A DNA stretch of 22,142 bases from a virus. The stretch's first letter is position 1. Each line of letters opens with the position of its first letter. The translations under genes were made by a program, and so were the position numbers. The DNA is taken from positions 1 through 22,142 of IMG/VR virus record IMGVR_UViG_3300044858_001172; one strand, given 5' to 3'. Below, piece after piece: positions 2,950 through 21,835 of the stretch. Below the pieces are notes generated by a model, which was given only the letters and a program-made list of their open reading frames with translations, was not told the DNA's origin and made no database searches.

Positions 2950-3293
2950 TGATCAACCCAGGCAGATACAACATCACGGCATACCAAGGTGCAACATACG
3001 ACCTAAACCTGACTTGGACAATCGGTGGTTCGGCTGTCAATCTGACAAACTACACGGCTGCTATGCAGGTTCGCACTACTCCAGCAGCAACCGCAACTAT
3101 CTTTAGCCTGACCAACGGCACTGGTATCACACTCGGTGGAACTGCCGGCACAATCGCCGTGACAATCGGTGCAACTGCTATGGGTGCAGCAGAAGCAGGG
3201 CAGTATGTTTACGATTTAGAGCTAAACTCTGGTTCAACTGTTACAAGACTGATTCAGGGAACTTTCCAAATCCAAGCTGAGGTCACTCGGTAA
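2949..3293 (+). CDS. BppU-N-like immunoglobulin-type phage structural protein
   Basis: 114 residues from ATG 2949. A longer frame begins at 2928, but 2949 forms a TAATG stop-start overlap with the upstream gene, the coupling used by its neighbours, and the seven extra residues look like read-through of that gene. The sequence has the pattern known from the N-terminal domain of phage upper-baseplate proteins and their relatives: [29 protein letters not shown], a G/T-rich turn ([15 protein letters not shown]), then [10 protein letters not shown] and a final strand [12 protein letters not shown]. This is a small beta-sandwich often linked to fibres. It directly precedes a collagen-like gene, so it may be the particle-attachment module for that fibre. 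That pairing is inferred. Confidence 0.7.
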
Positions 3294-4126
3294 TGTCAGC
3301 CTCTGTCCTAGAGATTACTGAAACAAACACACTTGTTTCGGTTCAAAATTCGGTTGTAAATGTTGGCGTAACTGAAACCAACACAACCGTAACTTTAGGC
3401 AACTCTGGCCCGCAGGGCATTCAAGGTATTCAGGGAGCAGTTGGCCCAGCTAACACGCTCACTATAGATTCGGTTACAGCAAGTGCTCCAGGCGGAGACG
3501 CTGAGGTAACAGTTTCTGGAACTGCACCCAATCAAACTCTTAGCTTTGTCATTCCAAGGGGAGAACAAGGCCCACAAGGTATTCAAGGTGCAACGGGTGC
3601 AACCGGTGCTACTGGAGCCACTGGTGCAACGGGAGCAACAGGTGCAACGGGGCCACAGGGCCCACAGGGTGAGCAAGGTATCCAAGGGGCGACTGGCCCT
3701 CAAGGCGAGACTGGCCCACAAGGGCTACAGGGTGAGCAAGGAATTCAAGGTATTCAGGGTGACACTGGCCCGACAGGCCCACAAGGTGAAACAGGCCCAG
3801 AAGGGCCACAAGGCATACAGGGGGAAACTGGTGCTAGTGGGCCACAGGGCGAACAAGGTATTCAAGGCATTCAAGGAGAGACAGGGCCGCAGGGGCCTCA
3901 AGGTATTCAAGGAGAAACGGGGCCACAAGGGCCACAAGGTATCCAAGGTGCAACAGGAGCAACTGGAGCGACAGGCCCCGCTGGAGTAGTTGCTGCTACT
4001 TCTCCGATTACTTACAACTCAGGAACTCAAACTGTTGGCATTGATGTAAATGCCGCAGGTATCACAATAAACGGCACGGCTGTCGCACTCGGTGGAACTG
4101 TTGTCGTGGAAGCGAGGCTGGCATAA
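3293..4126 (+). CDS. Collagen-like fibre protein (putative head fibre)
   Basis: 277 residues. A beta-rich N-terminus (1-38) leads into a short Gly-X-Y block (39-51). A conserved-looking linker follows ([20 protein letters not shown] to LSFVIPRG), then an uninterrupted Gly-X-Y tract from G90 to G231 (47 triplets), and a C-terminal beta segment ending VVVEARLA. X is mostly P, I, A or E and Y mostly Q or T, typical of bacterial and phage collagens that trimerise without hydroxyproline. A 47-triplet triple helix would be a thin rod of roughly 40 nm. It lies between portal and protease rather than with the tail genes, so a capsid-attached fibre is more likely than a tail fibre (inference). The start is fixed by a TAATG overlap. 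Confidence 0.85.
3560..3985 (+). repeat. Gly-X-Y coding repeat tract
   Basis: Tandem 9-base units coding for [12 protein letters not shown] and EQG triplets. The first part contains seven consecutive ATG tripeptides. Codon choice varies among copies (for example gcaacgggt, gcaaccggt, gctactgga), so the repeats differ at DNA level, which would limit slippage. They generate long spurious frames on both strands. Confidence 0.9.
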
Positions 4127-5718
4127 TGCCCTATTACATAACTGACAAATCTTCAGAATGCTCAAGCTGGGCAGTAGTCAAAGAAGATGGCGAAGTCATG
4201 GCTTGCCACAACACCAAAAAAGAAGCACTTGACCAGATGGTAGCTATCTCATTATCAGAAGGCATTGAGCCAGGTGGCGAAAGAGACATTCGTGCATTAC
4301 CAGGCGACCTCAAAGTCGGTGACTATGTATCTTGGAACTCTTCGGGCGGTAGGGCTCGTGGCGAAATTCAAGAGATTGTAGACAACGGATCTATCAATCC
4401 ACCTAATTCTTCGGTTACAGTCAATGGCACGGAAAAAGACCCTGCTGCCTTGATTCAGGTATACCAGCCAGTCAGAGACGGATGGGAAGATACGGATGTG
4501 TATGTTGCCCACAAGTTCTCCACACTTACAAAGATTGCTCCACTTCCTGAACCCAGTGATGAACCAGAAGATGAAGAAGAAGATGACGATATGGAAGAAA
4601 ACTCCATGTCTGAAACAGAATACCGAGAAGTAAACCTAGAGCCCCCAGCCTACATGCGAGCAGCAGCTCGTAGAGGTCTCAAATACTACGAAGAGGGGTA
4701 TGGCGGAGATGGCTTGGTTGAAAGAACAATCCGTGAGGCGAGAGCGATGGCAGCTGGCAATGTCACTGCTGATAAATGGGTTAGGATTCGGGCTTGGATT
4801 GCTCGTCATCTTCCTGATTTGGATAGTCCCGCCGCAAGACCTGATTCGCCTGATTATCCTAGCCCTGGTGTAGTTGCACACTTGCTTTGGGGATCAGGCC
4901 CATCAAAGAGAGCAGCACAACGAGCACTCACTTATGCAGAAGGTGTAGTTGCTAGAATTGAAGAAGAAAATGAAGGCCGAGCGAAAGGCGAAGCATTGTC
5001 AAAGATAGAAACACGCAGAACTCCAACCTCCATCGAGGTTCGTGAAGAAGGCGATGGCATGAGATTCAGTGGCTACGCTGCTGTATTCAATTCTGCTAGT
5101 GAGCCCCTGCCTTTTATCGAGAGAATCGCACCAGGTGCATTCCGCAAATCCCTGAGAGCTCGCAATGACATCAAGTTCCTTTGGAATCACGATGCTGGCG
5201 AGGTTCTTGGCTCAACTCGTGCTGGAACTCTTATGCTTACAGAAGATGACAAAGGTTTGAGGGTTGATGGTCTACTACCGAACACTTCTCGTGGTCGTGA
5301 TGTTGCTGAGCTGCTACGCCGTGGAGATGTTGACGCAATGAGCTTCGGCTTTAGTGTTCCTGCTGGAGGAGATTCATGGTCAGAGGATGGCTCAGAGAGA
5401 ACCTTGAATTCGGTTCGTCTATTCGAGGTCTCCTTGGTTAGCTGGCCAGCATATACCGCTACGGCTGGCACTGTTGCTGTTCGTGGCCTAGACAAGATTG
5501 CTAAGAGAGCTGACATTGACGCTGATGCTCTAGCAGATGCTGTTTACAAACTTGAGGAAGGCGAAACTCTTACCGAGGATGAGGGTCGTCTAATTCAGCA
5601 AGCCGTAGAAACCCTGATGCCAAAGTCAGAGGGATCAGAGCCTAGCGATAATTCGGTTGGACAGGCTATGCTGGCACTGAAGAAGAAGAAGCTCGAACTA
5701 CTACTGAATGGAATCTAA
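4126..5718 (+). CDS. Prohead protease (S78) with N-terminal accessory domains
   Basis: 530 residues, about 2.5 times a plain HK97 prohead protease. Visible parts: residues 1-50, a small domain (YYITDKSSECSSWAVV) of unknown role; 60-138, a compact beta domain (GDYVSWNSSGGRARGEI to HKFSTLTKI) matching the DUF2945/HVA1 TUDOR-like pattern; an acidic linker 142-160; 165-280, a helical domain (PPAYMRAAARRGLKYY, VVAHLLWGSGPSKRAA) of the kind often fused to phage proteases; and 293-455, the protease, with the likely catalytic His355 in WNHDAG and Ser406 in MSFGFS. The last 75 residues are charged and helical, possibly scaffold-like. The protease trims the capsid delta domain after assembly. The fusion suggests the N-terminal domains are delivered inside the prohead. 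Start by TAATG overlap. Confidence 0.88.
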   Translation: MPYYITDKSSECSSWAVVKEDGEVMACHNTKKEALDQMVAISLSEGIEPGGERDIRALPGDLKVGDYVSWNSSGGRARGEIQEIVDNGSINPPNSSVTVNGTEKDPAALIQVYQPVRDGWEDTDVYVAHKFSTLTKIAPLPEPSDEPEDEEEDDDMEENSMSETEYREVNLEPPAYMRAAARRGLKYYEEGYGGDGLVERTIREARAMAAGNVTADKWVRIRAWIARHLPDLDSPAARPDSPDYPSPGVVAHLLWGSGPSKRAAQRALTYAEGVVARIEEENEGRAKGEALSKIETRRTPTSIEVREEGDGMRFSGYAAVFNSASEPLPFIERIAPGAFRKSLRARNDIKFLWNHDAGEVLGSTRAGTLMLTEDDKGLRVDGLLPNTSRGRDVAELLRRGDVDAMSFGFSVPAGGDSWSEDGSERTLNSVRLFEVSLVSWPAYTATAGTVAVRGLDKIAKRADIDADALADAVYKLEEGETLTEDEGRLIQQAVETLMPKSEGSEPSDNSVGQAMLALKKKKLELLLNGI

Positions 5719-18704: not shown

Positions 18705-19291
18705 TGCCTATTCCTTTAGGAGTTCTTGCTGTTGCGGGAGCAGGGGCAGAGCCAGTTGTTGCTGGTAATGCTTATGAATGGCTTGAAACGCAAATTTTGG
18801 GGAGCGACACTACCTCTGTTACATTTTCTAATGTCAATTCAAATTATGGCTCTACTTATCAGCATTTGCAATTGAGAATTCTTGCTAGAACAGATAGAAA
18901 CGATACTGATGATTTTATTATGTTGCGATTCAATGGGGATTCTGGGAATAATTACACCTCTCACAACGTGAGAGGCAATGGAAGCAATGTTCAGTCAAGC
19001 AATCCTAGAACAAACTATCAAAACATAGAAATCAATTCAATAACCGCTAATACTCAAACAGCAAACAGTTTCGGTGCGGTGATAATTGATATTCTTGATC
19101 CTTTTGAAACCACAAAAAACACTACGATTAGGGCTATGACTGGTCTTACTGGAAGCTATAACTATGTAAGCCTCAATAGCGGGCTTTGGAATTCTACATC
19201 TGCTATAACCACTATTTTTCTAGACCAATTTTTTGGAACAGTTTTCAAAACTGGCTCTCGTTTCTCTCTATATGGTCTGAGGAGTTCATAA
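18704..19291 (+). CDS. Receptor-binding-type fibre module 1
   Basis: 195 residues, TAATG start. After a hydrophobic N-terminus (MPIPLGVLAVAGAG) comes the pattern YEWLETQILGSDTTSVTFSN, YQHLQLRILARTDRND, MLRFNGDSGNNYTSH and a final RFSLYGLRSS. This layout resembles single-domain jelly-roll tail fibre proteins of environmental phages. The two following genes share the skeleton (VTF or AF strand, TY..L.L strand, N.DSG.NY turn, closing LYG), so they look like diverged tandem copies. A role in host recognition is inferred. The composition is more A/T-rich and asparagine-rich than upstream genes. Confidence 0.75.
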   Translation: MPIPLGVLAVAGAGAEPVVAGNAYEWLETQILGSDTTSVTFSNVNSNYGSTYQHLQLRILARTDRNDTDDFIMLRFNGDSGNNYTSHNVRGNGSNVQSSNPRTNYQNIEINSITANTQTANSFGAVIIDILDPFETTKNTTIRAMTGLTGSYNYVSLNSGLWNSTSAITTIFLDQFFGTVFKTGSRFSLYGLRSS

Positions 19292-21634: not shown

Positions 21635-21644
21635 GCTAGTCTTG

Positions 21645-21702
21645 CTCGGCTGTTATTCGACATCCTTGTTCGCTTGTCCATAAGCCTCCTAGCTAAGCCG
21701 AG
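21645..21702 (+). other. Long-range inverted repeat at the end of the late operon
   Basis: CTCGGCT (21645-21651) is complementary to AGCCGAG (21696-21702), enclosing 44 bases. It could cap the 3' end of the late mRNA just before the terminator. I tested it for a tRNA and rejected that. No gene is seen in 21635-21705. Confidence 0.4.
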
Positions 21703-21705
21703 TAG

Positions 21706-21733
21706 CCCCCGTCTAAATGGCGGGGGTTTCTTA
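21706..21733 (+). terminator. Intrinsic terminator of the late operon
   Basis: CCCCCGTC (21706-21713) pairs with GGCGGGGG (21719-21726), eight pairs with one G-T, followed by TTTCTTATTT. It ends right before a TTGACA box. Confidence 0.88.
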
Positions 21734-21734
21734 T

Positions 21735-21762
21735 TTGACAAACATTCGGTTAGTCGTATACT
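21735..21762 (+). promoter_or_regulatory. Consensus sigma-70-type promoter for a short RNA
   Basis: TTGACA (21735-21740), a 16-base spacer and TATACT (21757-21762), the best promoter in the window. Transcription would begin near 21769. The spacer contains ATTCGGTT (21744-21751), the only intergenic copy of a heptamer otherwise found in coding sequence. There is no downstream gene on this strand in the window before a terminator. Confidence 0.75.
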
Positions 21763-21768
21763 TATCTT

Positions 21769-21835
21769 GAGAGTGTTGCTCTCCTTCTAGTTAGTTAGCA
21801 GAAGCCCCCTAGGTTCTTCCCTAGGGGGTTTCGCT
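21769..21835 (+). ncRNA. Putative small structured RNA
   Basis: Between a consensus promoter and a perfect terminator lie about 65 bases with no start codon in good context. They can fold into three adjacent hairpins: GAGAG/CTCTC (21769-21773, 21779-21783), CTTCT/AGAAG (21784-21788, 21800-21804) and the terminator CCCCCTAGG/CCTAGGGGG (21805-21813, 21820-21828). The RNA would end at about the stop codon of the convergent whiB gene, so it could also interfere with that transcript. The function is unknown; existence is predicted from sequence only. Confidence 0.5.
21805..21835 (+). terminator. Terminator between the small RNA and convergent whiB
   Basis: A perfect nine-base-pair stem CCCCCTAGG (21805-21813) / CCTAGGGGG (21820-21828) with loop TTCTTC, followed by TTTCGCTT. 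The symmetrical stem could work for both strands; the T-rich side favours + strand transcripts. Confidence 0.85.

What the first reader, a model, noticed from the sequence alone, without database searches (positions are those of the whole stretch)
21735..21835. Candidate small RNA between the late operon and whiB
A consensus promoter is followed within about 65 bases by a perfect terminator and no gene. The predicted transcript folds into three consecutive hairpins, and its 3' end abuts the stop codon of convergent whiB. A free-standing promoter-terminator pair at the late/early junction suggests a regulatory RNA or a transcription-interference device.
Basis: partly seen in the sequence, partly recalled or inferred. 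Interest (0 to 1): 0.62.

Follow-up and report, generated by a model that had tools for sequence, protein, structure and literature searches.

The report
Phage sRNA matching early-gene start sites
Next to its lysis genes this uncultivated phage of aquatic actinobacteria appears to carry a tiny free-standing RNA gene whose exposed stretch is complementary to the ribosome-binding sites of a block of small early genes, and in other phage families both sides of that match change together, which suggests that one RNA controls a whole gene block.

Summary
In detail: an 11/12 sigma-70 promoter (21735-21762), a predicted RNA of about 65-70 nt (from about 21769) and a terminator (21801-21832) whose tail overlaps the stop codon of convergent whiB. 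There are two hairpins, not three. The unit recurs, diverged, in several phage groups, either between lysis genes and whiB or beside the early-gene block. Its architecture is constant: 5' hairpin, exposed CU-rich linker, terminator. Best reading: a trans-acting antisense sRNA. The linker (CUCUCCUUCUAGUUAGUUAG) is complementary to RBSs of a small-gene block upstream of terminase (ACTAAC-n-GAAGGA; up to 19 pairs). In phages whose sRNA reads CUCUCUCU, those RBSs read GAGAGAG (22 sites, 15 at RBSs, 1 expected, p=8e-16). Own sRNA beats swapped sRNAs across 15 phage sets (permutation p=5e-5, not corrected for relatedness). The likely effect is repression of translation of the early block. Expression and direction are untested. 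Closest precedents: P1 c4 RNA and P22 sar (RBS antisense, one target). Cluster K mycobacteriophages have unexplained 13-nt "start-associated sequences"; their single reverse copy sits in a hairpin loop, so the same logic may apply there.

The parts
21735..21762 (+). sigma-70 type promoter TTGACA-16-TATACT
   Evidence: only TTGAC-N17-TATANT site in each of eight related records
21769..21783 (+). 5' hairpin GAGAGU-GUU-GCUCUC at the predicted RNA start
   Evidence: fold; all pairs kept in four families with one two-sided change (G-C to A-U)
21779..21798 (+). anti-RBS segment CTCTCCTTCTAGTTAGTTAG; its part 21784-21800 is the exposed linker
   Evidence: unpaired probability 0.94-1.0 over most linker positions; complementary to block RBSs of the same phage type
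21801..21832 (+). intrinsic terminator of the sRNA; tail runs to about 21840 over the whiB stop codon
   Evidence: stem kept while the apical loop varies among relatives
21644..21732 (+). structured holin 3' UTR with conserved CATAAGCCTCCTAGCT and the late-operon terminator (21704-21728); possible second anti-RBS RNA
   Evidence: fold z=-3.7; two compensatory double changes in the 7-bp stem against L008
21835..22137 (-). convergent whiB gene (neighbour, not part of the unit)
   Evidence: PHROG 472 WhiB, E 1e-15

Best explanation
The unit is a gene for a trans-acting antisense sRNA of about 65-70 nt. Shown in sequence: a near-consensus promoter and a dedicated terminator; a 5' hairpin and the terminator flank an exposed CU-rich linker; the linker is complementary, beyond the Shine-Dalgarno core, to the RBSs of several small genes in a block just upstream of terminase in the same phage type; sRNA and RBSs change together between phage families. 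Inferred: host RNA polymerase transcribes it, the RNA pairs with those RBSs during infection, blocks ribosome entry and lowers translation of the whole block together, probably as a timer that shuts off immediate-early functions. Genes of the block that are translationally coupled mostly have ordinary RBSs and would follow the gene upstream.
For: Unit conserved in position and architecture across diverged families. G002 (94-98% identical to the window) has block RBSs ACTAACTAGgAAGG, ACTAACgGAAGGA, ACTAACaGAAGGA and one AACTAGAAG-aaga-GGAGAGCAAC, 19 pairs. Swap test: G002 block RBSs pair with the window-type linker (mean -19.2) but not with CU-repeat linkers (-7.7 to -11.4); CU-repeat phages show the reverse. 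GAGAGAG: 22 sites in G009-G012, 15 at RBSs, 0.99 expected, p=8e-16; window-type phages 4 sites, 0 at RBSs; records without a seen unit 10 sites, 2 at RBSs. ACTAAC in block RBSs: 8/17 in the window superfamily, 1/93 elsewhere, p=5e-7. Own against swapped sRNAs over 15 phage sets: p=5e-5 for match length, 1.5e-4 for energy. Further families with the unit beside the block and 10-12 nt matches: L393, L406, L414, L418. Linker accessible; net energies favour three block genes, not the capsid gene.
Against: No transcript has been seen. Part of every match is the generic SD/anti-SD core. Families are related, so p-values overstate independence (about three to four sequence classes). A shuffled-sRNA test was significant only for G002. 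After opening costs two of five block genes of G002 are near zero net energy. L424, L395 and G017 show no special match. The window record itself does not contain the block; it is read from near relatives.
Confidence: 0.68

Rival explanations
1. The sRNA carries a generic anti-Shine-Dalgarno stretch and acts mainly on host mRNAs (host shut-off); the fit to phage RBSs is a by-product of purine-rich RBSs.
For: All linkers contain CUCC- or CCUU-like anti-SD cores; no host transcriptome was tested.
Against: Matches extend beyond the SD (ACTAAC; GAGAGAG is a poor SD), sit in one gene block, and follow sRNA type in swap tests.
Confidence: 0.13
2. A cis device for whiB: transcription interference, or an antisense RNA to the whiB 3' end.
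For: Convergent, the tail overlaps the whiB stop codon; whiB has no clear terminator of its own on the minus strand.
Against: The terminator stops the RNA at whiB; similar units lie beside the early block, away from whiB, in L393, L399, L402, L406, L414, L418; phiPsal1 has it after the holin with no adjacent whiB.
Confidence: 0.09
3. The block mRNAs act on the sRNA (sponge), or the sRNA activates the block, so the direction of control is the opposite of repression.
For: Complementarity alone does not give direction; several mRNAs carry the site.
Against: Sites lie on the SD itself at normal spacing to the start codon, where pairing normally hinders ribosome binding.
Confidence: 0.06
4. Chance promoter in front of an ordinary double terminator; no RNA gene.
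For: An 11/12 promoter is expected about 0.2 times per window by chance.
Against: Promoter kept at the same place in diverged relatives, unique in each record.
Confidence: 0.04

Closest known systems
c4 antisense RNA of phages P1/P7 (PMC12197685)
   Same: Phage-encoded antisense RNA that blocks an RBS of its own phage, with complementary segments exposed by RNA structure.
   Different: c4 has essentially one target (ant) and is linked to it; here one free-standing gene fits several unlinked early genes. No Rfam match to the C4 family.
sar RNA of phage P22 and OOP RNA of lambda (general knowledge; P22 sar cited in PMC12197685)
   Same: Short phage antisense RNAs from a dedicated promoter and terminator.
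   Different: Encoded opposite their single target; here the main targets are elsewhere in the genome with short imperfect pairing.
PreS of lambda and VpdS of phage VP882 (PMC12197685)
   Same: Trans-acting phage sRNAs.
   Different: Hfq-linked and described as acting on host genes or host and phage mRNA levels; here the predicted targets are a block of the phage's own early genes, and Hfq dependence was not tested.
Start-associated sequences (SAS) of cluster K mycobacteriophages (PMC3203893)
   Same: Extended shared RBS motif at many early genes; a single reverse copy lies between genes in a hairpin loop in K1 phages.
   Different: Other motif, other phage group; function of SAS unknown; the reverse copy is missing or degraded in TM4, Pixie, Marshawn and SirPhilip.

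Membership tests
Trans-acting antisense sRNA (functional class) | Own promoter and terminator, no conserved reading frame | tested here: met
   the short TTG frame is lost in L001-L006
Trans-acting antisense sRNA (functional class) | Exposed segment complementary to several mRNAs encoded elsewhere | tested here: met
Trans-acting antisense sRNA (functional class) | Transcribed, and changes target translation or stability in cells | not testable with these tools
   No expression data held for this phage
C4 antisense RNA (P1/P7, Rfam) | Match to the Rfam covariance model | tested here: not met
   only two sub-threshold hits to other families, outside the sRNA
Cis-antisense RNA to whiB | Conserved position overlapping whiB | tested here: not met
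   Overlap is only the stop codon; comparable units lie away from whiB in other families
Cluster K SAS system | RBS motif GGGATAGGAGCCC | tested here: not met
   Block RBSs here read ACTAAC-n-GAAGGA

The most novel reading that the evidence does not exclude
Many actinophages, including isolated cluster K mycobacteriophages, use one dedicated small RNA to control a whole early-gene regulon through matching extended RBSs: a private RBS code per phage in which sRNA and RBSs co-evolve. This would also explain the SAS motifs that have been unexplained since 2011.
Probability: 0.4. Interest if true: 0.87.

Novelty: new variant of a known kind. Interest (0 to 1): 0.76.

Why it matters
Phage antisense RNAs known to block RBSs typically have one target each. 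A single sRNA fitting a block of early genes, with both partners changing together across phage families, would be a post-transcriptional master switch for phage takeover in abundant aquatic actinobacteria. It gives a concrete, testable hypothesis for the start-associated sequences of cluster K mycobacteriophages, and a way to find such RNAs by computer: look for the single antisense copy of a phage's shared RBS motif.

Tried and rejected
Rfam: nothing at the sRNA. Nucleotide searches of cultured phages: no useful relative. Peptide coding: the short TTG frame is not conserved. Dinucleotide-shuffled sRNA control: significant only for G002; a weak null, since shuffles of CU repeats keep CUCUCU; replaced by swap, motif-count and permutation tests. 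A single best target (gene X, 73-83 aa, G006 4783-5004) was considered first: its RBS switches with sRNA type, but it is not the top target everywhere and its net energy is unfavourable in G002. Cluster K: the loop fits SAS in K1 phages and, with a bulge or mismatches, in Ekdilam and Cain, but not in Pixie, Marshawn or SirPhilip, so kept as suggestive only. A unit-like element in G017 (L303) showed no matching RBSs. Pattern scans for promoter or linker found only already known families plus chance hits. RNA-based prophage replication (PMC7157519) was considered: no par cassette is adjacent, and phiPsal1 is described as lytic.

Full report
What is there. The promoter TTGACA-16-TATACT (21735-21762) is followed by a predicted RNA starting near 21769 and ending at a 13-pair terminator (21801-21832); the tail overlaps the stop codon of convergent whiB. 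The fold has two hairpins separated by an unpaired linker. The window is a whole 22142-base virus record; it is 99.96% identical over 20.8 kb to a longer record, G006, and 94-98% identical to G002. In these records the main genes run on one strand in the order terminase, late genes, lysis, sRNA unit, whiB (opposite), early genes, and finally a block of small genes just upstream of terminase.

Is it conserved? Near relatives (L001-L007, L011) carry the unit with a kept terminator stem but a variable apical loop. L008 (whiB 73% identical) has a diverged unit: TTGACA-16-TATAGT, a re-paired hairpin and the shared CTCCTTCTnGTTAGTTAG. L013-L021 have promoter-like sequence, hairpin(s), a pyrimidine-rich linker and a terminator at the same place beside whiB. 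The pattern TTGAC-N17-TATANT occurs once in each of eight records and always at this unit. Scanning with the neighbouring exonuclease found further units about 390-510 bp upstream of that gene in L333, L334, L336, L341, L342 and L346/L348, while other relatives lack it there. The 5' hairpin keeps all pairs in four families, with one two-sided change.

What does the linker match? Listing the RBSs of the small-gene block showed that genes with their own start (not overlapping the previous stop) tend to share an unusual RBS, while most overlapping genes have ordinary ones. In G002, of the window type, RBSs read ctACTAACTAGGAAGG, ACTAACGGAAGGA and ACTAACAGAAGGA, and one coupled gene reads AACTAGAAG-aaga-GGAGAGCAAC; the reverse complement of the sRNA is GCTAACTAACTAGAAGGAGAGCAAC. 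More distant relatives (L387-L389, about 74-78% DNA identity to G002 in this region) keep ACTAAC or ACTAACTAAC in these RBSs. In phages whose sRNA reads CUCUCUCU (G009-G012) the block RBSs read GAGAGAG.

Tests. Swap test: energies separate by sRNA class. Motif count: 15 of 22 GAGAGAG sites at RBSs against 1 expected, p=8e-16; few in other phages. ACTAAC: 8/17 against 1/93, p=5e-7. A scan with the gene upstream of the block gave 80 loci. In several families a TTGACA promoter followed by a CU-rich RNA lies beside the block itself, with RBSs matching that RNA: L393 (CTTTCTCTC / GAGAGAAAGG), L406 and L414 (CTCCTTTCTCTCTC / GAGAGAGAAA, up to 12 nt), L418 (CTCCTTTCGTGT / ACACGAAAGGA; CCTTTCCCTG / CAGGGAAAGG), L399 (weaker, 8 nt). 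Permuting sRNAs among 15 phage sets gave p=5e-5 (match length) and 1.5e-4 (energy). These p-values do not correct for relatedness: there are about three to four clearly distinct sequence classes, and L395 and L424 do not fit. Accessibility: linker unpaired probability is 0.94-1.0 over most positions; net energies favour three block genes and not the capsid gene, and are near zero for two block genes.

A deposited phage genome. Pontimonas phage phiPsal1, described as lytic and no longer available (PMC6106888), has after its holin a hairpin TATCTA...TAGATA, the linker GCCTTCCTCTCTTGG and a terminator, and early genes with AGAGAGGAAG-like RBSs at 18869, 20328 and 22076. Its promoter is weak.

Mechanism. 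The simplest reading is an antisense sRNA that covers the SD of several early mRNAs and lowers their translation together. Pairing potential is shown; transcription, pairing in cells, repression and timing are inferred. Whether the purpose is early shut-off, dosage control or protection from superinfection is open.

Relation to known systems. c4 RNA of P1/P7 is nearest in mode of action (RBS antisense; PMC12197685); no Rfam family matches. Pope et al. [quoted passage not shown] That copy (Anaya 59870, Adephagia 58682) lies between genes in the apical loop of a long hairpin, and the loop sequence is the same in eight of the fourteen genomes aligned. In Cain and Ekdilam the loop still allows most pairs to an unchanged SAS; in Pixie, Marshawn and SirPhilip it does not, and no good reverse site was found in the right arm of TM4. 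This is suggestive only. A library search for papers linking SAS with small RNA found none.

A second element. The holin 3' UTR (21644-21732) forms a stem with two compensatory double changes against L008 around an invariant CAUAAGCCUCCUAGCU, whose reverse complement contains AGGAGG and so resembles an RBS. It may be a second anti-RBS RNA made with the late transcript; not pursued.

Noticed in passing
21644-21732: Holin 3' UTR is a structured element with two compensatory double changes against L008 and an invariant anti-SD loop CCUCCUAG; possible second antisense RNA.
   Followed up: partly
L269 34860-34920 (Anaya 59860-59920) and L271 (Adephagia about 58660-58720): The single reverse copy of the cluster K start-associated sequence lies in the apical loop of a long intergenic hairpin: candidate anti-SAS RNA in K1 mycobacteriophages.
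   Followed up: partly
L268-L282 alignment A1: A block GCTTTTAGACT...CACAACTGTGCCCAAAACGGCCCC...GGGGCCGT upstream of the anti-SAS hairpin is strongly conserved in cluster K phages, including Pixie; in some records short ORFs are annotated over it.
   Followed up: no
L311 3073-3144, L315 3073-3144: In two relatives a tRNA-like gene (ARAGORN, odd anticodon loop) lies upstream of the exonuclease where others carry the sRNA unit.
   Followed up: partly
L013-L021 terminator loops; G009 3400-3576, L391: Terminator loops of several sRNAs are C-rich (ACCCCCUU, UUUCCCCCCUUUU) and complementary to other RBSs (GAAGGGGGGG, AAAAAGGGAAAA) of the same phages, perhaps a second pairing site.
   Followed up: no
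L393 7127, L394 7154, L414 5068: Near-consensus promoters (TTGACA-16-AAGAAT/CAGAAT) lie directly in front of the first gene of the small-gene block, so target mRNAs may also be immediate-early.
   Followed up: no
window 3293-4126: Long collagen-like GPQG/GATG repeat protein in the late operon.
   Followed up: no
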